A DNA stretch of 64,000 nucleotides, taken from contig NZ_KE386491.1 of the NCBI RefSeq assembly GCF_000427405.1, forward strand, positions 4,939,303 to 5,003,302, in the 5' to 3' direction. This document shows positions 19,875-39,507 of this stretch, piece after piece; positions within the stretch are counted from its first letter, which is position 1, and every line of letters begins with the position of its first letter. Under the pieces are notes generated by a model that saw only the letters and a program-made list of their open reading frames with translations, ran no database searches and had not been told where the DNA came from. The stretch is from Flectobacillus major DSM 103. Lineage in GTDB: Bacteria; Bacteroidota; Bacteroidia; Cytophagales; Spirosomataceae. The translations under genes and the position numbers were made by a program.

Positions 19875-21239
19875 ATGAAATACATACTTTCGCTTGTCTT
19901 TATAGTAATGGTGTCGCTAACAGGATGGGCTCAGCATCGCATCGAGTTTCGTATCAAGGGTGTTCGAGATTCTACGTTCTATTTGGTCAATACCTACGAA
20001 AATAGTTATTTGGTACAAGATACCGCCAAGGCTGATGCCAATGGTAAAATTGTTTTTGAGGGCAACAAGCCTTTGATGAAAGGATATTATTTGTTGGTTC
20101 AAAATAATAGACGGTTATTCGATTTTTTGTTGAATGACCAATCTTTTACTATCGAAACTGATACTGCCGATTTTATAGCCAACTTTAAAGTAACAGGTGC
20201 TTCCGAAACCCAAAAGTTTGCAGAGTTCTTAAAAACCGTTAATGAAAAAGGTACCAAGATTGGCAAGGCATCTGCTGCCGAACGCCCTCAGTTGATAGCC
20301 GAAATAGAGCAATACAAAAAAGACTTTGTGAAGAAATACGAAGGTTCGTTTGCCGCCAATATCGTAAAAATTAATACCGAAGTACCAGTGCCTCCGCTAC
20401 CAGCCAAATCTACTGTAAAAGATACTGTTAGAAGAAATGAGTACATCCTCAAACATTTTTTTGATAATGTAGCTTTGTCCGACGAGCGTATGGTACGAAC
20501 GCCATTTTTAGGCAACTTGTTTGCCAATTACCTCAAAACACTCGAAAGCTCGTTCGACCCCGATACCGTTATTCAAATTGCGGATTATATCATTGATAAA
20601 ACACCTCCAAGAACCGAAATACGTAAATATGTAGTAGGCAAATTTGCCCAAAAATTTATTGCATCCGACTTTATGGGTAAAGAAGGAATTTATACGCACG
20701 TAGCCGAAAAATATATTCTTAGCGACAAGGTACTTTGGGATTCGTCGACTATCAAAAAGAATTTTGAATATGTGTATCGTATGAAACCTGTGTTGATTGG
20801 CAAAATTCTCAAAAATATGCCTCTAACCGACACCCTCGACCGCCCAATGCCTTTGCATGCCATAAAATCAAAATATACCTTGGTGATGATTTATGACCCT
20901 AATTGCCATCATTGTCAGGAAACCACCAAGCAGTTGGTAAAAGATTACCCCAAATTAGCGGCTGCGGGGGTTAAAGTATACATGGCAAGTGGAGTTGCTG
21001 GCGATAAACGCAAAAAAGACGAATGGCGTAAGTTTATCCGTGATTTTAAAACACAACCATTTATCAATGTCTATGACTCGAAAAACCTTGTAGATTTTAC
21101 CAACGAATACAATACAATTACATTCCCGAATGTGTTTTTGGTAGATAGTAATTTTAAAATATTGGCTAATAAAAAACTAGAAACAGAGCAGTACTTACGG
21201 CTGATTTCGGTTGTTGAAAAGGCTAAAACAAAAAAATAG
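19875..21239 (+). CDS. Periplasmic thioredoxin-like protein with DUF4369 and DUF5106-type regions
   Basis: A signal peptide (residues 1-19, ending GWAQ) precedes a small beta domain with FRIKGVRDSTFYLVNTYE, the pattern of DUF4369. A helical middle region of about 200 residues follows, as in DUF5106. The C-terminal thioredoxin fold has a CHHC redox motif in YDPNCHHCQETTKQL and the cis-Pro loop in ITFPNVFLVD. Such proteins are membrane-associated thiol-disulfide oxidoreductases of the TlpA/ResA type in Bacteroidota. The substrate is unknown. It is monocistronic; a MITE-like repeat begins seven bases after the stop. Confidence 0.85.
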   Translation: MKYILSLVFIVMVSLTGWAQHRIEFRIKGVRDSTFYLVNTYENSYLVQDTAKADANGKIVFEGNKPLMKGYYLLVQNNRRLFDFLLNDQSFTIETDTADFIANFKVTGASETQKFAEFLKTVNEKGTKIGKASAAERPQLIAEIEQYKKDFVKKYEGSFAANIVKINTEVPVPPLPAKSTVKDTVRRNEYILKHFFDNVALSDERMVRTPFLGNLFANYLKTLESSFDPDTVIQIADYIIDKTPPRTEIRKYVVGKFAQKFIASDFMGKEGIYTHVAEKYILSDKVLWDSSTIKKNFEYVYRMKPVLIGKILKNMPLTDTLDRPMPLHAIKSKYTLVMIYDPNCHHCQETTKQLVKDYPKLAAAGVKVYMASGVAGDKRKKDEWRKFIRDFKTQPFINVYDSKNLVDFTNEYNTITFPNVFLVDSNFKILANKKLETEQYLRLISVVEKAKTKK

Positions 21240-21246
21240 CTGTTGT

Positions 21247-21483
21247 AAACATGAGTTATGCCAAGTTGAGTGAATGGCGGTTATTTTTGAATATGATTTT
21301 TACCAGTAGAGACGCAATGCTTTGCGGCTAGTGTCATTTAACCTAAAAAAGGCGGTCGAAAAACAATTTTCGACTGCCTTTTTTAAGCCTCATCAAAGTA
21401 CACTTGACGACCTTATGAATCACAACAAATACAAATAGAGGGTATCTTTTAATATTACCTAATGTTTGGGATGACTCATGTTT
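21247..21483 (-). mobile_element. MITE-like repeat, copy 1
   Basis: This 237-base element has terminal inverted repeats: AAACATGAGTTATGCC at the left end and GGGATGACTCATGTTT at the right, with two mismatches between arms. It shares its end sequences, internal blocks (TTATTTTTGAATATG, TCTTTTAATATTACCTAA) and two hairpins with the copy at 37698-37968. There is no coding capacity. It fills the gap between two convergent genes and ends three bases before the stop codon of the rhamnosidase gene. The strand is assigned so that it matches the direction of the adjoining minus-strand gene. Confidence 0.75.
21347..21385. terminator. Hairpin terminator inside MITE copy 1
   Basis: AAAAAAGGCGGTCGAAAA pairs with TTTTCGACTGCCTTTTTT, including one G-T wobble. 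A and T runs flank it, so it can stop transcription of both converging genes. Confidence 0.75.
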
Positions 21484-21485
21484 TT

Positions 21486-23849
21486 CTATTCAGCTACAAA
21501 AGTGTATTTCCCTCCTTTTGACACTTCAAAATTTAGGTAATGTTCATTGCCCGGTACCAAGTCGATATAAGCCAGGCTTGGAATGTATTTGGTATTGTGA
21601 AAAATCGTTTGCCCATTACAAACAATTTTTTTGTAAATATCTGCAATAATAGGAATTGAAATAATCCCTGTCATATTTTCAGGTATTTCAGCCATTAAAT
21701 TAAGCTGTTGATTGCTATAAGTTATATTGAGTTTTATGATACCTTTTGGGGTAGGCACTTTGCATTGTACGCTTGAAAGTGAGCCAAGCTGTGGCTGAAT
21801 ACGGAACGACTGAAAGCCGTCGGACAATGGCGAAATTCCTGCAACATATTGTGATAAAAGGGTGATTGGGCCACCTGTCCAGCCATGGTTATAAGTGCCT
21901 CCACCGTACAGATGACTATTCACAGCCCAGCCTTCCCAAAGAGTTGTTAAAGGGCTATTAACCATTTCGGTATAACGTTTCTTCATTCTAGTCAGACCAC
22001 CTTGGGCATCAGCCATCATAAAAAATGCTTCAAGGATATATTTTTCCATGTAGGGGCTGGCGTGCATTTCATGAGAAAGAAATTGTTGGATAGCAGGAAA
22101 TTTATCGGCATCGGCCAATCCTGCCACTACAGCAAGTCCATTGCCTCGGTCGTCGGTAATGCCTTGATAGTCTGGGCTTTTATAGAAAGTTCCTTGCCAG
22201 AAAATAGTATTAAAAGCCTCTTTTAGTTCCTGCATTTTGTACTCATATTCGGCCATGTCTTGCTCGTTGTGAGTGAGGTGGGCCATTTTGCTAAGCCCTT
22301 TTAGTGCCAAATAATACCACGCATTATCTAACAGCGGAATATCTAGGTTATCGCCCCAATCGTGCCACATCCAGCCACCAGTACGGTGCTCTACCAAGCC
22401 ATCTTGCTTGGTATGCCAAAGAGCTAGGTATTTTTTGACGTGTGGATACACCTCCTTGATAAGGGCGGTATCGCCTGTGTATTTGAAATAATTCCAGAAG
22501 CCATATTCCCCAATACTGGTTAGCATTTGCCCAGGTAATTCTTTATCCCAGTTACCAGCAGGAATAGGCGAAAAAAGTACCCCATCGGGTTTTTGCCAAT
22601 GTACTAACTCGCGAATAGCTTTTTTTAGTGAACGATGCCCCATTACGTCCCAATAATAAAATATTTCACCTTCATTAATCACGACATCGCCCCACCACTG
22701 AGCTCTTTCACGGTCGGGACAATCAGAAATAACATCCCTAACATTGAGGGTTAGGGTATTGAGGGCTTTTTCTTTTAAGGTATTATAAAAAGGGTCGTTA
22801 CAACTAAAATCGCCCACTGTTTCGGCATTGTATCGGGTTTCTCGGTATTTAAGGGCCAGTACTTTTACACCTTTTGGGAAAAAATATTTTACATCGTGGC
22901 CATTAAAATAGGCATAACTTTCAAACTCCTGAATACCCTTAGTTGTAATATATTCGGTACGAATGTTGGGGGCACTTCCTCCAAGATAGTTATCGGTACG
23001 AATGTCGATTTTGAGTCCGGCGGGAGCATCAATTTTGAAATAAGGTGTAACAGTCAAGTTTTTGGGTAAAGCCATCGCAATTGTGTCGCCTTGTGCTGTA
23101 AAAGGCAGTGTTGGATTGGCTTTATGAGTAATATAGCTTATTGTATTAGGATAATTTTTTAAGCCTGCATTGTACCATTGTGGAATAGGACGAGCAATCA
23201 GCTTGTTCCAAGGGCTTTCACCTGCATAGGCTAGCTCGGTAGCAGCATTCCATTTTGAATCATCATATTGAGAGGTATACCACAAAGGTAATTGTAGGTT
23301 GGCATCGAAAGAAACATTTGATTCGGGCATTCGAAAATTGGGGTGAGGTGCAGGCGTTTCGCCAAAGGCTGGATGCACTTTGGCTAGCCAAGTAGCATTA
23401 CTAACAAGGCTAGTTTGTAAACCAAGCGATAAGTCAAATAACAAACCAGTTTTGCCCGAACTTTTGTGATTAAACCCATCTTTTCCAAAATACCATACCA
23501 AAATAGCAATGGTATTGTCTCCATTTTTGAGGTATTGAGCTATATTAATTTCGTCATAATAGGTATCGTTTGGATTCGGGCCTCTTTTTAGCCCACCCTC
23601 AAATACCACCATTTGACCATTGACCCAAAGCCAATATTTTGAATCTACTGCAATTTTGGCTATTGCATAAGAGGATGATTTTGGCACATTGAATTGCTTA
23701 CGAAAACAAATCCACTGATTAGGTTTCTTTGATTCGGTATTAGTGCTAATCCAACGTGCTGATGTACTAAACTGTGCCATAGCCGAATAACTCAGCCCGA
23801 TTATGACAATAATAGCTTGGAAAATAGAGAGGTAAGGTATTTTTTTCAT
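21486..23849 (-). CDS. Secreted alpha-L-rhamnosidase-like glycoside hydrolase (GH78 type)
   Basis: A signal peptide (residues 1-25) is followed by beta-sandwich domains (ARWISTNTESKKPNQWICFR, YWLWVNGQMV) and then a six-hairpin (alpha/alpha)6 barrel. The barrel opens with NVRDVISDCPDRERAQWWGD, the counterpart of the GH78 DCP.R.ER..W.GD motif that supplies the general acid region. It continues with WHDWGDNLDIPLLDNAWYYLALKG and TLWEGWAVNSHLYGGG, and ends in a C-terminal rhamnosidase beta domain (FRIQPQLGSLSSVQCKVPTP). These enzymes release rhamnose from plant or microbial glycans in the periplasm. At 787 residues it is within family range. Substrate specificity is not proven. No SusC/SusD partner lies nearby. 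Confidence 0.85.
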   Translation of the reverse strand: MKKIPYLSIFQAIIVIIGLSYSAMAQFSTSARWISTNTESKKPNQWICFRKQFNVPKSSSYAIAKIAVDSKYWLWVNGQMVVFEGGLKRGPNPNDTYYDEINIAQYLKNGDNTIAILVWYFGKDGFNHKSSGKTGLLFDLSLGLQTSLVSNATWLAKVHPAFGETPAPHPNFRMPESNVSFDANLQLPLWYTSQYDDSKWNAATELAYAGESPWNKLIARPIPQWYNAGLKNYPNTISYITHKANPTLPFTAQGDTIAMALPKNLTVTPYFKIDAPAGLKIDIRTDNYLGGSAPNIRTEYITTKGIQEFESYAYFNGHDVKYFFPKGVKVLALKYRETRYNAETVGDFSCNDPFYNTLKEKALNTLTLNVRDVISDCPDRERAQWWGDVVINEGEIFYYWDVMGHRSLKKAIRELVHWQKPDGVLFSPIPAGNWDKELPGQMLTSIGEYGFWNYFKYTGDTALIKEVYPHVKKYLALWHTKQDGLVEHRTGGWMWHDWGDNLDIPLLDNAWYYLALKGLSKMAHLTHNEQDMAEYEYKMQELKEAFNTIFWQGTFYKSPDYQGITDDRGNGLAVVAGLADADKFPAIQQFLSHEMHASPYMEKYILEAFFMMADAQGGLTRMKKRYTEMVNSPLTTLWEGWAVNSHLYGGGTYNHGWTGGPITLLSQYVAGISPLSDGFQSFRIQPQLGSLSSVQCKVPTPKGIIKLNITYSNQQLNLMAEIPENMTGIISIPIIADIYKKIVCNGQTIFHNTKYIPSLAYIDLVPGNEHYLNFEVSKGGKYTFVAE

Positions 23850-30268: not shown

Positions 30269-33200
30269 TTAAAATTTAAAAGAAGTTAAAACTTTTACTC
30301 TTCTTAATGAACTGCTTGGAACATTATAAATATACTTTAGACCATCAACACCATATAATTTTTCAAATGTTACTCCCGCAGGGATTTTAGCTTTCATAAT
30401 TATTGAATTATCGAATGCCTTACTATACATTTTTGCATCAGAAAGTTTATCAGCAAATAGCTTTCCAGTTGCATAACTATTTTCACCCGGTTTAAATCCA
30501 TTTTTAAGAATATCTTTATATTCATCTAAACTTACAGACCTATACACAGTAGTTGATTTTGTTGCAACTACATTTTCAACATTATTTATTCCATTTCCAA
30601 AAGCTCCTCCCAGAGACTTGCTAACATACTGCTTAGTAGCCTTAATCCCTACATCAATGGTGGTAGTGATAGGCTGACCATTGATAATAACCGTATTAAT
30701 TGATTCTTTAGCGTATGCTTGGAAACTATTTTTAAACCAACCGCCAATAGTATTTCCTAATTTAGCTAAGGCTGGCCCAACTACTTTCGCTATTTTAGCC
30801 CCTGCAAAAGAAGTGGCTGCACCCACCGCAGCTTCTTTGCCAACGTACAAAAGTGCATCCGTTGGATTATTAAAATCAGGAACATTACCTGTGGCAATAT
30901 CAATGGTGGCATTTCCTGCCGAAGTAATTGCTCCTCCTGCCAATGGATTGGTTAAACTGACTACACCACCAGCAGCACCCGTTCCAAAATAGCCGAGTGC
31001 TTGCCAAGGGTTTTTAATTTTACTCCAGTTGGTTGCTACGTTCAAACCGCCACCAATTGCTCCCGCAATAATAGGAATTAAGATTGGTAATCTTCCATCA
31101 GGGTCTATATGTGAGGTAGGTGTATTAAGAGCATAAGCAAAAGCCGATATGTTCTCGTAAGGGTCTTCGGGGTCATAGCTATTCATTCGCCCAATGACTG
31201 AATCATAATGTCTCCAATCAAGCAGAATGTTTCCCGTGATATTATCGGTTTCTCTACCACTAACAAAATATCTGTCTATTTGATTGGGTGATAGTTGATA
31301 TTCCGAACCTGCATTAACATTACTCCAAGGGTCATACGACTGACTTTGCGTAATAAATGCCACGCCTAAAGAATCCTTGTAGCTTAACCGAAGGTTTCCA
31401 ATATGGTCAGTATAAGCATACTCTAACTTCCCATTTGTAAAACGCCCCTCTTGATTTTGAACCTCCGAAACTTTAAAATCATCCAAAGAGGTATTTACAC
31501 CTGTGAAGGTATAAACTATTTCTCCATCGTAAAGCGTATAAGACGTTACGCCATTTTTGGTAACTTTTCGCTGTCTTCTTTCTCCAGTAGAGGTATAAAA
31601 ATACTCGACTTTGGTAGAGTCATTGAACGTAACTTTCGATACCAAATCTAAGAAATTATACTTGATATTGTAAATACCCTTATTGTTGTCTTTGGTAATT
31701 TTGCCATCAGGAGTATAGGCATAATCCACTCCCGAAACGTCCCTAAAGTCATTTGCTCCCACGTTACCCGTTATGGCATCATCTACTTTTTGAAGTTTAT
31801 TACCCGTTCCAAGGTAACTATAAGTCAAGTTATCGACTAAATCGTAAGTGTTTGAGCCTGTCTTACTGTACCTTTTCAGGTGTAGTAAATTACCGTTGGC
31901 ATCGTAATCGGTCGTAACACTATAATTTTCATTCCCAACGCCAGTGAACTGAGCATTAATGAGTTTATTTGAGCCGTCATAAGTATAATCGTAACTTCTA
32001 CTTTGGGGGGTGTTTTTAGCAATCCAAGTATGTTTAGCAATTGAGCCGTCAAATATTTTACCGTTTTCGTGATAATCCAATTTGTAACTAAAGAGTTTTT
32101 CGGTAGCTACTTGTGGATTTCCCGAAGCATCTAAATTTACGCCTCTTAATTGCCCCCGTACATTATAAGCGTACTCAATCACTTGCAAGCCAGCACCTCT
32201 AACGGGAGCGAGCGTACCCATTTCTAATTTACTATTCAGAAGGAATTTAAGCGTACCTGCATCATACAATGTACCTGCTTGTACGGTTGTATTAGCAGGA
32301 ATGGTAATGGTATGCCCTGTATTAATGACCGCAGGAGTAGTAAGACTTGGTATAGCGTTATTCGCCCAAACACTTGGCGTAGTCCAAGAGCCAGATTGAA
32401 CGCTACTGACCACATTGGCATTGGGTTGAATGATTTTGCCCTTTAATCTTCCAATGTTATCATAGTATAGCGAGCTGATTTTTAATCTTGGTACTTTATT
32501 GGTCGTACCTTCTACGAGGGTGTAATAAATGTCTTTACTTCTCCCTACATGGTCGAGGGTATGCTCATGGGTTCTAATCAAATCACTCGCCCCTCTTTTA
32601 CGATATACCATTCGAGATTGCAGAGTTTCCCCCACGAAATTGTACTGAATATCATTTTGGTTACGAGCGTATAAATCGTGATAAACAATACTTTGAATAG
32701 GTCGGTTTTTATCGTCGTAAAATATGCTACTTGGAAAAGGGAAATCCCCAAAATTGTCAATTTTGTGTAAGCCACCCGTCATTAACCCCTTGGCATTGGT
32801 TGCCGAATAAGCCGTTGTATTGTAGGGATTTGACTGAAAACCGTAGTCGGCAATTGTACCCGAATTGCCATCGGCATACCGCCAATCAGCATCGTCGTAA
32901 TAATAGATGTTTTTCCACGTGGCATCATTGATGTAAGACCTGAGAGCCGAAGGAAAACAACGATTGGTGTAATTACGAACATTGCCCGAAGCGGTAGTTC
33001 TTTCTTCAAACTGTTGACTATCGGTAAAATTATCAAAGAGGTTTTGCAGGTAGGTACGAGTATAAGTGGTTGGCAGAACCATTTGTCCCACTCTTACCGT
33101 TCTTGCTTGTCCGTCTTTTTGAACGTAGTTCCATGTATTAGCCTTCGCTAATTCATCATCATCTTGGCTGAGTACCACTTCATTTAGGCGATTGTAAACT

Positions 33201-36200
33201 ACTCTCGTCCATCCAATGCCAGGGGATTTTTTTTCTATTACCCTTGATTTACCGTCGTAACGAAACGCATGGACATTTTCATTGAACTCTGACCACGATT
33301 CAAAAGAAATACTCGATAGTGTTCCCAAAGCATTATAGGCTTTAGGGGGTAGAATGTAACGGATTCTGCTTGCTTTGTCAAATACGTAAGCGGCTGATAG
33401 ATAGATGTTTACATTCGATTGTATATCTTTTTGAACGATATTTCCCGATTTATCTTTGTACTCAATGACTTTATATCCCCGTTCATCGGTAGAGACTGTT
33501 TTTAATAATTCATAATCGGAATATGTACCAATAAAAGAGGCATCAGTATTATAAAATAACTTAAATTTTTTAATTCCATTAGCGGTTTCGTAACGATTTT
33601 GAACGTATTTACTACTATCCCTAAATACTTTACCCGTTCCGTAGCTCTTAAGAACTCTGCTCAATGGCGAAGCTTCATATTCAAAGACTTCTGAGTATGG
33701 CATTTGGTCTTGATAAAAACTTTTGGCAGTTGATTTAACCGTAGCCGTATCTAATAAACTACCGTCTGCTTGGGTACTTTCAACGGATAACCATGTTTTT
33801 TTAGGACGAGTAAAAGCATCGTAATCAACCACGCCAGTAATCAAATCTTTTTGATTGGGTGATGCTTTATAAGCCACATTTTCAATCGTTTTCCCAAATC
33901 CATCAAGATATTGGACCCTAATTTCACATTGGTTGAAGTCCAAATTGAGAGCATCGGTGGTCGCAATTCGTGGAATACGAGTAATGATACGATTATAAGC
34001 CGTAGATGTATTGAGTATTGGGTCACTATCTGCTTTACCACGATAAACATATTGCAGGTGTTTTAAAACCTTTCCGTCTTTATCGGTTTGCTGTTTTAGC
34101 TTCCCATCAGGATAATATTCGTTTGAAACCGATAAGCCGTTTTCATTGGTTTGTGTGCTTGCTCCGTAGAGAATTTTAGCATACTGAGTGCTTACAGTCT
34201 GTTCGGATGGTTGCCCAACATTACTGGTTTGACTGATTGCTAAAGTTGGGTAAGTAGCATCATAATTTATTTTGGCAACCGTCCCAAAATTGATAGAAGT
34301 TTGTTTGGGCAGTCCAATACTATTGTAAGCATCCACCGTAGTTTTTACAATATAATCGGTGTCTTTGCTAAACGTTGTATTATTAAGATTATAGCTTGCT
34401 TCTGAAAATGTAGCTCTTGGCACATTTTCTAAGACATAATTTGATTTTAGTAACCCTGCACTATATGTGGTTGAATCCTTATCATAATAGTTTTGATAAG
34501 AAGCATTTACAACGAAAGTATCACCAAATGTATTTTTAATACGATTGATATTTTCAATCACCGCAGTATAAATATGTTTTTGTTGTAGCTGATAAATACC
34601 CTTTATTTCTCTATTGCTTAGGTTCGGATTCATCCCCAAATCAAAATCAGGAGCATATTTTAAGGAGTTTTCAAGCGTGTTACCATAACTATCACTGGTT
34701 GAAATCTTAATAAGTTGATTGTGTTTGGCATTATTAGGGTACTCATAGGTCGTCACATTAACCACTGGATTAGTACCGTCTTGGCTGTATGTTTTAGTAG
34801 TGTCGGAAGTGATATGGAAGGTATTATAAAACTCATAATAGCTTCTTTCAAAATTATAATTTTTATCTACTAATCTAAATGAGCGATAGTTTTGTTGGAT
34901 ATTACTTGGAATAGGAACTTGTAATTGCTGTTCGGTGTAAACACTACTTTTTACGGAAAGTAACTGATTATTTCTACCGTAGGTTGCCACTTGAGTAGGA
35001 ACGCCTACCGTATTTTCATGATATGGATACCATTTCCAAGGGCGTAAATAGCGACTGGTATCACAAGTCGTAATTGGATAGGGTACAGCTGGTGGATATT
35101 GGGTAACGCAATTATAGGTAATTGTCTCAACCAAATTTATTTCTGTTAAAGGCTGTAAAAACTCCGAAATCGTATAACCCAAACTATCAGATTCATCTCC
35201 TGTTAAAATGGTTTCCTTGACCCGTGAGTACCCTACATTAGGGCGACCCGTTTCAGAAAGAATTTGTTGATACAAGCCTGAATACCAATATTGATTTGGA
35301 GAGCCAGAATAATTGGTTTTATCATCAAAATGATATACAGGCTTCAAACATAGAAAACCTGATGATTTTCCATCTACTTGTTTATAATCATATCGTTTAA
35401 CTCTTTTAAGATTAGAAATCGAATCCAAATAAATAATTTTCTTAATGCGACTTCCTCCAATGAGGGAAGTATAATTTCGAGCGTCATTATTTTCGTATTC
35501 AAAAAAGACATTACTCCCTGTTGAATGAGACATAGTAGTAAGTGTTCCATATTGCGACCATCCGTTAGTGGCATCACGATTTCCATATTGATTATTGGCA
35601 CAATTACGGAACGCATCTTGCCCAATCAAGATATTTGCTCCCAAAGCACCATTCAAATAGCCCCAATGGTCAAGACCTTGCGTGAACCTGCTTGGTAGTC
35701 CATAACCATCATCATAGTATTTAAACGTGTACTTATTGCCGTCAGGCTCTTCAATTGAACGGAGTTTGAAACGCTTTTGGTGGGTGTATCCTACAATGTC
35801 ATAAGAATACCCCGCAAAAGTGGTGAATACATTACTTTGGTCGCTTCCTGTATTGTAATCGTACTTAAATTTCCATTCAAAGACTTTGGATGTATCGTCT
35901 TTGGCATATACCGATATTTTATGCAATGCTCTACCTGTTGGTGTAGCAAAATTGTAGAAATTGTCTAAATCTTCACGGGCAGGATATGTATTATTGAGAT
36001 ACCTATAATTGTAATTGGTGTTTTTTGACCAACCACCCTTGTTTATCTCTACCACATGGGTACTATTACTAATCTTAAAAAGGGTTGAAGAGATAACGTA
36101 AACCCGATTTATCTTTTTATCAATTCCGTTAAAGGTACAGTTAATGGTAACAGCTTGTTGCTCTGCTACACGGTAAAAAGAATATTGAGTGGAATGGTAT

Positions 36201-37183
36201 TCAAAAATGGTTTGATGACCAAAAGGCGTTTGTATTTTGGTTAGATAATAAGCCGATGTTACCGCTTCATTTGTCCAATATACATCTAAATCATCTACTG
36301 AAATATTTTTTGAAGCACTCGCTTCCATTTCAAAACTACTTTCTGTTGCAGCACCATCAAAGTAGTATTTTGTACCATCAGGCATAGTTACAATCCAATT
36401 GGTAAAATATCCTGCGGTTAATATGTTGCTACCCGATGCGGTATATGGAGTCCATGTTACCTGCACATCAATGTCCGCTTCTGGGTAAAAATGAGCCTTT
36501 TTATAGTTATCAAAACTAAATTTATAACTCGTGCCATTGATGTTTAAAAAGAATAAATCGGGCTGAGAATCATTTTCATCATCATTATCAGCATGGAGCC
36601 CATGTTGATAGAATCCTTTATGAGTGGTGGCATAATAGTAGTCGTTATTTTCATAAATGACTTTTCCTTCATCTGGAATACCCCGAACAATTCTTGAAAT
36701 CTGTGGCGTTAGGGAATTAGCTGTCCAATTCATACCTGTCCATGATGAAACATCATGTCCTTTCATTCCCGAAGCATTGTAAGAAAGACTAATAGGTACG
36801 GTTGCCCCTCCTGCTTCAGTTAGCGTATAAATGGGTAATCCAATAATGGGAGTACCCATGAATAAATTGACAGGAATATCTTGAATACGATTATTAAGAG
36901 TGCCATCTTGAGAACTTGTTGGCGTTTTTCCTGCGGGTAAGCTACCTACAAAAGCATTTGAATTGGCAGGAACTGGAGGTTTTGGTTCTTCTTTTTTCGG
37001 AGCTTCTTTTACCTCAATCGGCTTATCTAAGGGTTGCTCTTTGGGGTTTTGAGGATTTGGAACGGTGCTTTGCTGAGCAAAACAATAAAAGTGAATGCTT
37101 ATGAACAATAAGCACAAAATCTTAGTGTGAACTTTTTCATGTTTGGTCTTTATAAATAGCTTCAAAATAGGGAGCGGTAGCAA
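30269..37183 (-). CDS. Giant RHS polymorphic toxin with ADP-ribosyltransferase-like tail
   Basis: The frame codes for 2304 residues. In order: a hydrophobic signal segment (KILCLLFISIHFYCFAQQ) and a Pro/Lys-rich linker. Then an N-terminal RHS region (PVNLFMGTPIIGLPIYTLTE) and YD repeats with a DUF6443-like stretch (VQYLDGFGKTIENVAYKASP). A beta-solenoid-like insert lies near 1590-1640 (SGSWTTPSVW, NTGHTITIPANTT). The RHS core (YTDHIGNLRL to HIDPDGRLP, about 1921-2028) is followed by a glycine-rich hydrophobic region. The last 94 residues (from TTVYRSVSLDEYKDILKNGF) look like a toxin domain with an ART-type first strand (YRSV) and a YATGKLFADKLSDAKMYSKA segment. No good start exists in frame: 37183 is TTG, and the ATG at 37140 that would give MKKFTLRF is in the +1 frame. 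The gene may therefore carry a 5' frameshift. Confidence 0.85.
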   Translation of the reverse strand: MLPLPILKLFIKTKHEKVHTKILCLLFISIHFYCFAQQSTVPNPQNPKEQPLDKPIEVKEAPKKEEPKPPVPANSNAFVGSLPAGKTPTSSQDGTLNNRIQDIPVNLFMGTPIIGLPIYTLTEAGGATVPISLSYNASGMKGHDVSSWTGMNWTANSLTPQISRIVRGIPDEGKVIYENNDYYYATTHKGFYQHGLHADNDDENDSQPDLFFLNINGTSYKFSFDNYKKAHFYPEADIDVQVTWTPYTASGSNILTAGYFTNWIVTMPDGTKYYFDGAATESSFEMEASASKNISVDDLDVYWTNEAVTSAYYLTKIQTPFGHQTIFEYHSTQYSFYRVAEQQAVTINCTFNGIDKKINRVYVISSTLFKISNSTHVVEINKGGWSKNTNYNYRYLNNTYPAREDLDNFYNFATPTGRALHKISVYAKDDTSKVFEWKFKYDYNTGSDQSNVFTTFAGYSYDIVGYTHQKRFKLRSIEEPDGNKYTFKYYDDGYGLPSRFTQGLDHWGYLNGALGANILIGQDAFRNCANNQYGNRDATNGWSQYGTLTTMSHSTGSNVFFEYENNDARNYTSLIGGSRIKKIIYLDSISNLKRVKRYDYKQVDGKSSGFLCLKPVYHFDDKTNYSGSPNQYWYSGLYQQILSETGRPNVGYSRVKETILTGDESDSLGYTISEFLQPLTEINLVETITYNCVTQYPPAVPYPITTCDTSRYLRPWKWYPYHENTVGVPTQVATYGRNNQLLSVKSSVYTEQQLQVPIPSNIQQNYRSFRLVDKNYNFERSYYEFYNTFHITSDTTKTYSQDGTNPVVNVTTYEYPNNAKHNQLIKISTSDSYGNTLENSLKYAPDFDLGMNPNLSNREIKGIYQLQQKHIYTAVIENINRIKNTFGDTFVVNASYQNYYDKDSTTYSAGLLKSNYVLENVPRATFSEASYNLNNTTFSKDTDYIVKTTVDAYNSIGLPKQTSINFGTVAKINYDATYPTLAISQTSNVGQPSEQTVSTQYAKILYGASTQTNENGLSVSNEYYPDGKLKQQTDKDGKVLKHLQYVYRGKADSDPILNTSTAYNRIITRIPRIATTDALNLDFNQCEIRVQYLDGFGKTIENVAYKASPNQKDLITGVVDYDAFTRPKKTWLSVESTQADGSLLDTATVKSTAKSFYQDQMPYSEVFEYEASPLSRVLKSYGTGKVFRDSSKYVQNRYETANGIKKFKLFYNTDASFIGTYSDYELLKTVSTDERGYKVIEYKDKSGNIVQKDIQSNVNIYLSAAYVFDKASRIRYILPPKAYNALGTLSSISFESWSEFNENVHAFRYDGKSRVIEKKSPGIGWTRVVYNRLNEVVLSQDDDELAKANTWNYVQKDGQARTVRVGQMVLPTTYTRTYLQNLFDNFTDSQQFEERTTASGNVRNYTNRCFPSALRSYINDATWKNIYYYDDADWRYADGNSGTIADYGFQSNPYNTTAYSATNAKGLMTGGLHKIDNFGDFPFPSSIFYDDKNRPIQSIVYHDLYARNQNDIQYNFVGETLQSRMVYRKRGASDLIRTHEHTLDHVGRSKDIYYTLVEGTTNKVPRLKISSLYYDNIGRLKGKIIQPNANVVSSVQSGSWTTPSVWANNAIPSLTTPAVINTGHTITIPANTTVQAGTLYDAGTLKFLLNSKLEMGTLAPVRGAGLQVIEYAYNVRGQLRGVNLDASGNPQVATEKLFSYKLDYHENGKIFDGSIAKHTWIAKNTPQSRSYDYTYDGSNKLINAQFTGVGNENYSVTTDYDANGNLLHLKRYSKTGSNTYDLVDNLTYSYLGTGNKLQKVDDAITGNVGANDFRDVSGVDYAYTPDGKITKDNNKGIYNIKYNFLDLVSKVTFNDSTKVEYFYTSTGERRQRKVTKNGVTSYTLYDGEIVYTFTGVNTSLDDFKVSEVQNQEGRFTNGKLEYAYTDHIGNLRLSYKDSLGVAFITQSQSYDPWSNVNAGSEYQLSPNQIDRYFVSGRETDNITGNILLDWRHYDSVIGRMNSYDPEDPYENISAFAYALNTPTSHIDPDGRLPILIPIIAGAIGGGLNVATNWSKIKNPWQALGYFGTGAAGGVVSLTNPLAGGAITSAGNATIDIATGNVPDFNNPTDALLYVGKEAAVGAATSFAGAKIAKVVGPALAKLGNTIGGWFKNSFQAYAKESINTVIINGQPITTTIDVGIKATKQYVSKSLGGAFGNGINNVENVVATKSTTVYRSVSLDEYKDILKNGFKPGENSYATGKLFADKLSDAKMYSKAFDNSIIMKAKIPAGVTFEKLYGVDGLKYIYNVPSSSLRRVKVLTSFKF

Positions 37184-37586: not shown

Positions 37587-37700
37587 TTAATTTTTTAGTG
37601 CAATTCTAATAAAAGCCATTCTGATAAAACTTCCGGAAAGGCTTGTTAAGTGCTCAAAATCTTCACTTAAACGCCTATAATGTTGAGGAGGTGCTAAAAC
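37587..37700 (-). pseudogene. C-terminal remnant of an IS5-type transposase
   Basis: The minus strand from 37700 reads APPQHYRRLSEDFEHL, then SFIRMAFIRIALKN and a stop. This matches the usual last 35 residues of IS5-family transposases, including the YRRL..D.E.L and the helix ending FIRI. The rest of the gene is missing: the fragment is cut exactly where the MITE-like repeat begins at 37698. It is therefore dead. Confidence 0.7.
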
Positions 37701-37968
37701 ATGAGTCATCCCAGATTTTGCAGATGAGTGATTATTTTTGAATATGCTTTTCACCAGTAGAGCTGCAATGCTTTGCAGCTAAAGATATGTCATTTAACAT
37801 AAAAAGGCGTTCGAAAAACTAATTTCGAACGCCTTTTGCATGAATAGCCCCTACTTTTCTATCATTTGAGCAATTGATAAGCCTCTTCAATGTTTACTTG
37901 ACGAATCCCAACAAACACAAAAAGGAGGTCTCTTTTAATATTACCTAACATTCGGGATGACTTATGTT
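37698..37968 (-). mobile_element. MITE-like repeat, copy 2
   Basis: This 271-base element begins AACATGAGTCATCCC and ends GGGATGACTTATGTT, imperfect terminal inverted repeats. It is collinear with the copy at 21247-21483 but has about 35 extra bases in its right half (around 37837-37875). It has no coding capacity. The left end truncates the transposase remnant; the right end lies 12 bases from the guaA stop. The same relation to a minus-strand stop codon is seen at copy 1. I found no clear target duplication. Confidence 0.75.
37799..37837. terminator. Hairpin terminator inside MITE copy 2
   Basis: AAAAAGGCGTTCGAAA pairs perfectly with TTTCGAACGCCTTTT. Compared with copy 1 the T-A pair here replaces a G-T wobble, so base pairing has been kept while the sequence changed. 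Confidence 0.78.
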
Positions 37969-37980
37969 GGGTTGGTATTA

Positions 37981-39507
37981 CTATTCCCACTCGATGGTTG
38001 CTGGTGGTTTTGAAGAAATATCATATACCACTCTGTTTACACCACGAACTTTGTTGATAATTTCGTTCGATACCTCTGCCAAAAACTCATAAGGTAAGTG
38101 ACACCAGTCGGCGGTCATACCGTCTACTGAAGTTACAGCACGTAACGCAACTACTTTTTCGTAAGTACGTTCGTCGCCCATTACACCTACCGACTGAATT
38201 GGCAATAGAATAGCTCCAGCTTGCCAAACTTGGTCATAAAGTCCTTTTTCTTTTAATTTATTGATAAAAATAGCATCAACATCCTGCAGAATAGCTACTT
38301 TTTCGGTAGTAATATCTCCTAAAATACGGATAGCCAAGCCTGGGCCAGGGAAAGGGTGACGGCCTAAAATAGCAGGTTCGATACCCAATGATTTACCTAC
38401 CAAACGCACTTCGTCTTTGAACAATGTATTCAATGGTTCTACCACTTTCAATTTCATATAATCAGGTAAACCACCCACATTGTGGTGCGACTTGATAGTA
38501 GCAGAAGGGCCTTTTACCGATACTGATTCAATTACGTCGGGGTAAATAGTACCTTGTCCTAACCATTTTACATCTTCAATCAAGTGAGCTTCTTGGTCAA
38601 AAACATCAATAAAGGTTTTACCAATAGCTTTTCTTTTAGCTTCAGGGTCGCTCAAGCCAGCCAATGCTGTATAGAATTGCTCTTTGGCATCAACGCCTTT
38701 TACATTTAAGCCTAGGTTTTTGTAAGAAACTAATACTTCTTCAAATTCATTTTTGCGAAGCAAACCGTTGTCTACAAAAATACAATAAAGGTTTTTGCCA
38801 ATAGCCTTATGAATCAATACTGCCGCTACTGAACTATCGACACCTCCCGACAAGCCTAATACTACTTTGTCATTACCTAATTTTTCTTTTAATGCTGCTA
38901 CTGTAGTTTCAACAAACGAGTTTGCTGTCCAGTTTTGCGAACAACCACAAATACCTACTACAAAGTTTTTCAACATTTCTTTTCCTTCTTCCGAGTGAGT
39001 TACCTCAGGGTGGAATTGGATACCGTAGGTAGTTTCATCTTGGATTTTGAAAGCTGCAACCTTTACAGAATCGGTAGAGCCAATAATTTCGAAGTTTTCA
39101 GGAACAGACATAATGGTATCGCCATGCGACATCCATACCTGCGAACCTTCCGAAACACCCGCCCAAAGGTCTGATGGTTGAACTTTCGTCATTTTGGCAC
39201 GGCCATATTCACGGTGGCCAGCATTGAATACTTCGCCACCTGCTGTATGAGCCAAAAGCTGAGCTCCGTAGCAAATGCCAAGCAAAGGAAGTTTTCCTCT
39301 GAAAAGAGACATATCCACTCTTGGAGAATCTTCTTCACGTACAGAACAAGGACTACCTGAAAGAATAACCCCTTTTACATCTTCGCCAATTTCGGGAATA
39401 TGATTGAAAGGGTGAATTTCGCAATAGACATTCAACTCACGGACTCTACGAGCAATAAGCTGAGTCACTTGTGAACCAAAATCGAGGATTAATATTTTTT
39501 CGGTCAT
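37981..39507 (-). CDS. guaA: GMP synthase (glutamine-hydrolysing)
   Basis: GuaA converts XMP to GMP with ATP and glutamine in the last step of guanine nucleotide synthesis. The N-terminal class I glutamine amidotransferase shows [18 protein letters not shown], the nucleophile Cys in [13 protein letters not shown] and the His-Glu pair in [14 protein letters not shown]. The ATP-pyrophosphatase domain has the PP-loop [13 protein letters not shown]. The C-terminal dimerisation domain has [15 protein letters not shown] and ends PPATIEWE. At 508 residues it is complete. The MITE-like repeat begins 12 bases after the stop and provides its terminator. Confidence 0.98.

What the first reader, a model, noticed from the sequence alone, without database searches (positions are those of the whole stretch)
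21247..21483. MITE-like family: two copies with terminal inverted repeats
The segments 21247-21483 and 37698-37968 share ends (AACATGAGTCATCCC / GGGATGACTCATGTT), several internal blocks and order, differing by point changes and one 35-base indel. They have no coding capacity. I do not recognise this element from any described family.
Basis: seen in the sequence. Interest (0 to 1): 0.65.

Follow-up and report, generated by a model that had tools for sequence, protein, structure and literature searches.

The report
DNA repeat that replaces gene terminators
This is a short, non-coding, hairpin-rich repeat scattered through a bacterial genome that sits just after gene ends and, at some places where related species can be compared, appears to have taken the place of the gene's own transcription stop signal.

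Summary
The two segments are real members of a high-copy family. Their 15-base end occurs 209 times in the genome at up to 2 mismatches, against 6 for the reversed control. Copies are non-coding, mostly 130-320 bp, with nested inverted repeats around a terminator-like hairpin and unrelated flanks. No consistent target duplication was found in 79 own copies or 20 from another genus.

Copies sit just after stop codons (median 18 bp): 53 of 79 between convergent genes, 0 of 79 between divergent genes. Whole contigs of three congeners show the same bias.

In 6 of 11 polymorphic loci the species lacking the element has an ordinary terminator hairpin there, and the filled allele lacks it. At 4 of these the borders match the hairpin's foot. 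One locus shows this on one side, one is nested, three are unresolved. Element-free orthologous ends kept their hairpin in 136 of 153 comparisons.

Best reading: a MITE-like element that spreads by replacing terminator hairpins. The enzyme is unknown and termination is untested.

The parts
21247..21483 (.). Element copy 1, between convergent genes; 7 bp from the + strand stop codon and 2 bp from the - strand stop codon
21247..21264 (+). Left terminal inverted repeat of copy 1 (AAACATGAGTTATGCCAA)
   Evidence: I2
21466..21483 (-). Right terminal inverted repeat of copy 1 (TTGGGATGACTCATGTTT)
   Evidence: I2
21344..21385 (.). Central palindrome of copy 1, 19-bp arms, 4-nt loop, A-tract/T-tract: terminator-like
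   Evidence: I1; consensus terminator hit on - strand only
37698..37968 (.). Element copy 2, 12 bp after the stop codon of a GMP synthase (guaA) gene
37698..37719 (+). Left terminal inverted repeat of copy 2
   Evidence: I1
37947..37968 (-). Right terminal inverted repeat of copy 2
   Evidence: I1
37802..37837 (.). Central perfect palindrome of copy 2 (15-bp arms, 6-nt loop): terminator-like by inspection
   Evidence: I2; RNA fold of the whole element z -6.7; the simple terminator scan gave no hit here
37761..37780 (.). Inner small hairpin (AGCTGCAA/TTGCAGCT) preceded by GTAG
   Evidence: I4
19875..21239 (+). Upstream neighbour of copy 1 (thioredoxin-like domains)
21486..23849 (-). Convergent neighbour of copy 1 (alpha-L-rhamnosidase-like)
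37981..39507 (-). guaA-like gene whose 3' end abuts copy 2; congeners G001-G003 have an ordinary terminator-like hairpin there

Best explanation
The segments are two of many copies (209 matches to its end, at up to two ends per copy) of a non-coding palindromic element. Its constant part is a 16-23 bp end repeat (AAACATGAGTCATCCC...). Its inside is a set of nested hairpins around a terminator-like hairpin, and the inside differs between genera. SHOWN: the ends, the abundance, the position just after stop codons, the lack of a consistent target duplication and, in six loci compared between species, the absence of the gene's own terminator hairpin where the element stands (borders at the hairpin's foot in four, looser in two). 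INFERRED: the element spreads by hairpin-for-hairpin replacement, its A-tract/T-tract ends joining at the A-tract and T-tract that border intrinsic terminators. Once in place it serves as the (often two-way) terminator of the adjoining genes, which makes the swap harmless. How the swap is made is not shown. I favour a structure-driven process, either template switching between single-stranded hairpins or cleavage of an extruded hairpin followed by copying, over classical cut-and-paste, because arms co-vary within copies, loops are found in both orientations and one flank pair has become palindromic.
For: Abundance and dispersal. Same ends with another interior in genus g46 (20 copies, pairwise 83-99.6% identical, median 92%), in g2 (L064) and in a Saprospiraceae MAG (L060). 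Context: 53 of 79 own copies convergent, 26 tandem, 0 divergent; 132 gene 3' ends at a median of 18 bp; G049 16 of 20 convergent, 4 tandem; congener contigs 35 of 50 convergent, 15 tandem, 0 divergent, against 158/761/161 junctions. Replacement with borders at the hairpin foot: L153, L157, L067 and G003 set-1 263678. Native hairpin missing with looser borders: G003 set-1 308529, G003 set-2 46307. Left side only: G002 set-2 92606. Control: hairpin kept in 136 of 153 comparisons. Fisher against 17 of 153: 7 of 11 P = 1.4e-4, 6 of 11 P = 0.0012, only the four sharp loci of 11 P = 0.036. Leftover spacer at convergent copies has a median of 37 bp (n = 53) against 145 bp in 31 element-free own gaps. 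Arms: 0.63 against 2.62 mismatches of 14 within and between copies, 68 of 79 hairpins parsed, 0 of 2000 permutations as low. Loop in both orientations: own 21 and 11 of 39 (7 unclassed), G049 15 and 4 of 20 (1 unclassed). A bare end-repeat hairpin inside a 57-nt palindrome where G002 has a longer copy.
Against: Only 6 of 11 polymorphic loci show loss of the native hairpin on both sides, and only 4 with sharp borders; 1 is one-sided, 1 (L076) is a nested gain that keeps the outer hairpin, 3 are unresolved. I recognised the native hairpins by eye, while the control used a script that found a terminator in only 153 of 506 reference ends. For the window's own copies the swap is seen on one side at best: guaA side of copy 2; at copy 1 the congeners carry other repeats. 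No experiment shows termination; the simple scan hits copy 1 on one strand and not copy 2, and a stricter script calls terminators on both strands in 15 of 79 copies. Small-number excesses of 2-4 bp repeats exist (G049 k=2: 4 against 1.95, k=4: 1 against 0.16; 11 others k=2: 2 against 0.6, k=3: 1 against 0). Insertion followed by loss of the old hairpin is not excluded. No enzyme was found, and only the Y1 family was searched for.
Confidence: 0.55

Rival explanations
1. Ordinary MITE moved in trans by a transposase that I did not find, with strong preference for terminator hairpins as targets; the old hairpin is deleted during or after insertion.
For: Terminal inverted repeats; closely similar dispersed copies in G049; a breakpoint exactly at the outer end of the repeat between G001 and G002 (L078/L075) looks like the work of an end-recognising enzyme; a few own copies have inverted flanks as if inserted into a hairpin loop (score >=9 in 20-nt flanks: 4 seen of 79, 0.37 expected).
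Against: No consistent target duplication; no partner element recognised among 149 of 209 own ends; the old hairpin is absent, not split, in the sharp loci.
Confidence: 0.26
2. The repeats are old, selected bidirectional terminators that change mainly by homologous gene conversion among copies, with little true mobility.
For: Many copies are shared at the same junction between congeners; arms co-vary.
Against: Presence/absence polymorphism with unrelated native hairpins; closely similar dispersed copies in G049.
Confidence: 0.11
3. REP/BIME-like element moved by a Y1 (IS200/RAYT) transposase.
For: Location at gene 3' ends as for REPs; GTAG before an inner hairpin; no consistent target duplication.
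Against: The Y1_Tnp family search finds 0 in the own genome and 5 in congener G004, where the element was not found.
Confidence: 0.03
4. Segmental duplication of two loci.
For: Only two copies in the window.
Against: Many copies with unrelated flanks.
Confidence: 0.005

Closest known systems
Prokaryotic MITEs (Correia, ERIC, BrickBuilt of Porphyromonas gingivalis, MITECca01 of Cardinium)
   Same: Short, non-coding, terminal inverted repeats, intergenic, dispersed.
   Different: BrickBuilt has ends like those of IS5-family elements and putative target duplications, and at the one site discussed leaves the native terminator in place (PMC4596501, passages read). The element here has no consistent target duplication and, where comparable, stands in place of the terminator.
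REP/BIME palindromes
   Same: Palindromic, mostly between convergent or unidirectional genes, downstream of coding regions (PMC3733652, passages read).
   Different: REPs are 20-40 bp with GTAG or CGTC tags (search listing); here 118-365 bp with a constant outer repeat and no Y1 transposase found in the own genome.
[quoted passage not shown]
   Same: A repeat with terminator-like structure that clusters with, and takes part in insertions among, other repeats (PMC10969869, passages read).
   Different: Sequence not compared; the passages read do not mention terminator replacement.
Insertion sequences that target REP hairpins (ISPsy8, ISPa11, IS1397)
   Same: Insertion directed to palindromes at gene ends (PMC1525189, passages read).
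   Different: They insert into the palindrome and, for ISPsy8, split it and leave a 3-bp direct repeat; here the hairpin is missing at the sharp loci and no consistent repeat is seen.

Membership tests
MITE | Terminal inverted repeats shared by the copies | tested here: met
   79 of 87 candidate copies pass end and palindrome cut-offs; the ends were also the search key
MITE | No coding capacity, 50-1000 bp, high copy number | tested here: met
   coding capacity checked for the two window copies only
MITE | Target site duplication | tested here: not met
   k = 2-9 about as expected in 79 copies; G049 20 copies k=2: 4 against 1.95, k=4: 1 against 0.16; 11 others k=2: 2 against 0.6, k=3: 1 against 0; none at k of 5-7 in either
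MITE | Partner autonomous element with the same ends | tested here: inconclusive
   none recognised among 149 of 209 own ends; viral contigs 0 for one exact pattern; plasmids only one short chance-like match each
MITE | Inserted DNA is added to an otherwise intact target | tested here: not met
   6 of 11 polymorphic loci lack the native hairpin (4 with sharp borders), 1 more on one side; 1 nested gain does keep its outer hairpin, 3 unresolved
REP/BIME | Palindromes of 20-40 bp at gene 3' ends | tested here: not met
   location met, size not
REP/BIME | Y1 (RAYT) transposase in the genome | tested here: not met
   PF01797: own 0, G001 2, G002 1, G003 2, G004 5
Intrinsic terminator | G+C-containing hairpin followed by a T-tract just after a stop codon | tested here: inconclusive
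   hairpin and position met; script on both strands 15 of 79, probably because the arms run through the A/T tracts; scan hit in copy 1 only
Intrinsic terminator | Terminates transcription | not testable with these tools
   needs RNA 3'-end mapping or a reporter
Rfam families | Match to a described RNA family | tested here: not met
   0 matches in the window at gathering threshold

The most novel reading that the evidence does not exclude
A class of mobile element without its own transposase whose unit of movement is a transcription terminator: a hairpin with A-tract/T-tract ends that overwrites other terminator hairpins across the genome by structure-driven copying, carries interchangeable inner hairpins between genera, and persists because each new copy replaces the function it destroys.
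Probability: 0.32. Interest if true: 0.85.

Novelty: new variant of a known kind. Interest (0 to 1): 0.7.

Why it matters
If confirmed, a genomic parasite avoids harm by replacing a needed part with one of its own, and gene ends, usually ignored in comparative genomics, become a moving habitat. It would explain why such repeats pile up between convergent genes without target duplications. It also makes a testable claim about how single-stranded hairpins exchange.

Tried and rejected
Segmental duplication: rejected. Target duplications: no consistent one. Insertion into hairpin loops as the general rule: only a few copies have inverted flanks (mean effect z about 1.7 at 20 nt, 88 of 2000 permutations as high). 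Synteny breaks at copies: in G049 the flanks of 4 of 4 loci were not adjacent in up to 7 relatives, some in hundreds of contigs, but outward control junctions were kept in only 5 of 15 comparisons; in G001 against G002, element junctions and control junctions were adjacent alike, 7 of 9 informative each, of 10 tested each. I dropped this idea. Y1 transposase link: not supported; other transposase families were not searched. Rfam, plasmids, viral contigs: nothing of use. The one scan of genome contigs gave a single Saprospiraceae hit. First terminator script was too strict and was replaced. Phages and E. coli collections were not searched.

Rows dropped before counts: 8 of 87 candidates (weak ends or no central palindrome) before the 79-copy tests. 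Polymorphic loci: 6 with the native hairpin missing (4 sharp, 2 looser), 1 one-sided (G002 set-2 92606), 1 nested (L076), 3 unresolved (G002 set-1 284701, G001 set-1 139808, G001 set-1 99160). Not counted as polymorphic: set-1 44776, a decayed shell in both species; L234, the same locus as set-2 104336, where G003 holds a shortened element-like sequence; set-1 336430/353873, where G002 has about 2 kb between the genes and was not resolved. L078 and L235 turned out to have element-like sequence in G003 too. L170 could not be compared (left flank not found). In the control 353 ends without a detectable terminator were set aside, the three species pairs are not independent, and at least one of the 9 'other hairpin' cases is itself a member of the family.

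Changed on re-checking: the G049 copies are closely similar, not near-identical; 4, not 6, loci have sharp borders; the congener contigs were picked by synteny with known copies, so they are less biased, not unbiased; the palindrome is 57, not 58, nt. I lowered the main odds from 0.60 to 0.55 and the bold reading from 0.35 to 0.32 for these reasons.

Full report
OBSERVATION. Both copies exist at the stated places with the stated ends. Flanks do not align. A family profile finds no further copy in the window.

FAMILY. Searching the 6.22-Mb own genome with each copy gave 163 and 172 first-look candidates; 40 of each were scored, the weakest at E about 2e-50 and 7e-20. The 15-base end occurs 209 times at up to 2 mismatches, against 6 for the reversed control. 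A strict central-hairpin pattern occurs 74 times in the own genome, 59, 45 and 30 times in congeners G001-G003, and 0 times in congener G004. In 101 genomes sampled from the family, end counts (control in brackets) are own 209 (6), G001 151 (10), G002 154 (15), G003 127 (9), G004 8 (9) and, in another genus, G049 120 (5). Several others are lower but above control, for example G005 38 (12), G061 30 (6) and G051 25 (2); most are at control level.

ANATOMY. From 95 merged own stretches (490,872 bases with the window) I took 87 candidates, of which 79 passed cut-offs. Outer consensus is AAACATGAGTCATCCC ... GGGATGACTCATGTTT (base counts). Lengths run from 118 to 365 bp; 72 of 79 are 130-320, with 38 at 230-305 and 27 at 140-200. 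Inside lie further inverted repeats and a central hairpin such as AAAAGGCGTTCGAAA/TTTCGAACGCCTTTT. Arms of the central hairpin match each other within a copy far better than between copies: 0.63 against 2.62 mismatches of 14, in 68 of 79 hairpins that could be parsed, 0 of 2000 permutations as low. In copies aligned in one orientation the loop occurs in both orientations: 21 and 11 of 39 own (7 unclassed), 15 and 4 of 20 in G049 (1 unclassed). The 20 fetched G049 copies are 83-99.6% identical (median 92%, 51 of 190 pairs at 95% or more), share the outer repeat, and have a different interior with a similar hairpin. G005 (L064) and a Saprospiraceae MAG (L060) show the outer repeat around yet other interiors. 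The smallest form seen is a bare end-repeat hairpin inside a 57-nt palindrome (28-nt arms, one central base) in G003, at a junction where G002 has a longer copy.

POSITION. Of 79 own copies 53 lie between convergent genes, 26 in tandem, 0 between divergent genes; 132 adjoining gene 3' ends lie at a median of 18 bp, 26 5' ends at 240 bp. Genes are simple ORF calls. That sample was chosen by the repeat itself. Whole contigs of three congeners, chosen for synteny around known copies, gave 38 and 12 copies: 35 convergent, 15 tandem, 0 divergent, against 158, 761 and 161 junctions; many of these copies are shared between the species, so they are not independent. In 160 kb of G001 taken at arbitrary places there were 3 junctions with a copy: 2 convergent, 1 tandem. 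G049: 16 convergent, 4 tandem, 0 divergent of 20. Leftover spacer at 53 convergent own copies has a median of 37 bp, against 145 bp in 31 element-free own convergent gaps and 181 bp in 123 congener gaps. A terminator-like hairpin between stop and element was seen at 2 of 132 ends, of which only 28 have 45 nt or more of room.

REPLACEMENT. Comparing orthologous junctions, sharp borders: (1) L153, G001 filled; G002 and G003 have a hairpin of the type AAAGCCCGATAAG...CTTATCGGGCTTT in that place, with matching sequence on both sides. (2) L157, same, a GGCTACTG hairpin followed by T6. (3) L067, same, a longer native hairpin, border read by eye. (These three.) (4) G003 set-1 263678, filled; G001 and G002 have AAAGAGGTTGTCC...GGGATAACCTCTTT after the identical TCTAAAGAAA. 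Looser borders: (5) G003 set-1 308529 and (6) G003 set-2 46307, where G002 has AAAAAAAGCCCAAG...CTTGGGCTTTTTT; in both, the G003 copy has decayed ends and extra sequence beside it. (7) G002 set-2 92606 shows the swap on the left side only. (8) L076 is a nested gain: G002 and G003 carry only the outer palindrome and G001 has the core in its loop. Three loci are unresolved. In element-free orthologous ends the hairpin is kept in 136 of 153 comparisons, another hairpin is found in 9, none in 8. Fisher tests against 17 of 153: 7 of 11 P = 1.4e-4, 6 of 11 P = 0.0012, 4 of 11 P = 0.036. Direction: a native hairpin shared by two species against one filled species occurs with G001 (loci 1-3) and with G003 (loci 4, 5) as the filled one, so at least one set is a gain under any tree of the three; for locus 6 only G002 was available. 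At the window's copy 2, G001-G003 have an ordinary terminator-like hairpin after guaA that is missing in the own genome, where the element ends 12 bp from the stop; the other flank is not comparable, and G004 has no such hairpin next to the stop. At copy 1, G001 and G002 have the same gene pair with other repeats between.

MECHANISM. Shown: ends, location, lack of a consistent duplication, exchange in comparable loci. Inferred: joining at A-tracts and T-tracts, and terminator function. Co-varying arms, loops in both orientations and a palindromised flank are what hairpin-primed template switching would leave; they do not prove that it moves the element between loci. A breakpoint exactly at the outer end of a copy (L078 in G001 against L075 in G002) could instead point to an end-recognising enzyme. 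No partner element was recognised: of 149 ends examined (209 in the genome) 135 lie in short pairs and 14 in or beside decayed or miniature copies. Of 26 wider pairs, 25 have at least one end in a short copy and the last has one end beside a copy and a 4-mismatch other end; genes between them were not family-scanned. Y1 transposases do not track the family.

LITERATURE. Eight searches of the open library listed no paper whose title or shown abstract start describes an element replacing terminators. The lists are small and the library lacks most subscription journals. Passages read: PMC9769881, PMC10969869, PMC3733652, PMC4596501, PMC1525189.

VERDICT. Real, not an artefact. MITE-like in form, but two tested MITE features fail (target duplication, intact target). 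I rate it a new variant of a known kind; the bolder reading is given separately.

Noticed in passing
G003:C99 about 88475 (L337): Bare end-repeat hairpin in the middle of a 57-nt palindrome (28-nt arms, one central base) whose left flank looks rewritten as an inverted copy of the right flank.
   Followed up: partly
L075 (G002) against L078 (G001): Element and one flank are about 95% identical but the other flank changes completely exactly outside the end repeat.
   Followed up: partly
L254 (G003:C29:255000-257500): At the junction orthologous to L078, G003 has about 1.7 kb between the two genes with an element-like sequence next to each gene end, as if a segment sits between two copies.
   Followed up: no
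G001:C30 and G002:C45, the junction orthologous to copy 1: Other palindromic or tandem repeats (GGCACAAAGG type; AGGCAAAAAGGC..TTAGGCAATAG type) occupy this convergent gap; a GTGCTGGATTCC..TCCAGCACC repeat occupies another. Several hairpin repeat families seem to use gene ends.
   Followed up: no
G049 copies L182-L201: 15-base (CCGCAGCGGCGGCCG) and 16-base inserts are present or absent among otherwise similar copies.
   Followed up: no
G016: Exact end repeats lie about 60-78 bases from the start of several contigs, suggesting that identical copies broke the assembly.
   Followed up: no
G100: 58 end matches but also 27 for the reversed control, 24 of them on one strand; unexplained.
   Followed up: no
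window 30269-37183: Very long open frame (2304 aa) upstream of copy 2, not identified.
   Followed up: no
G000:C6:1026254-1026313: 60-bp miniature own copy made of little more than the two end repeats.
   Followed up: no
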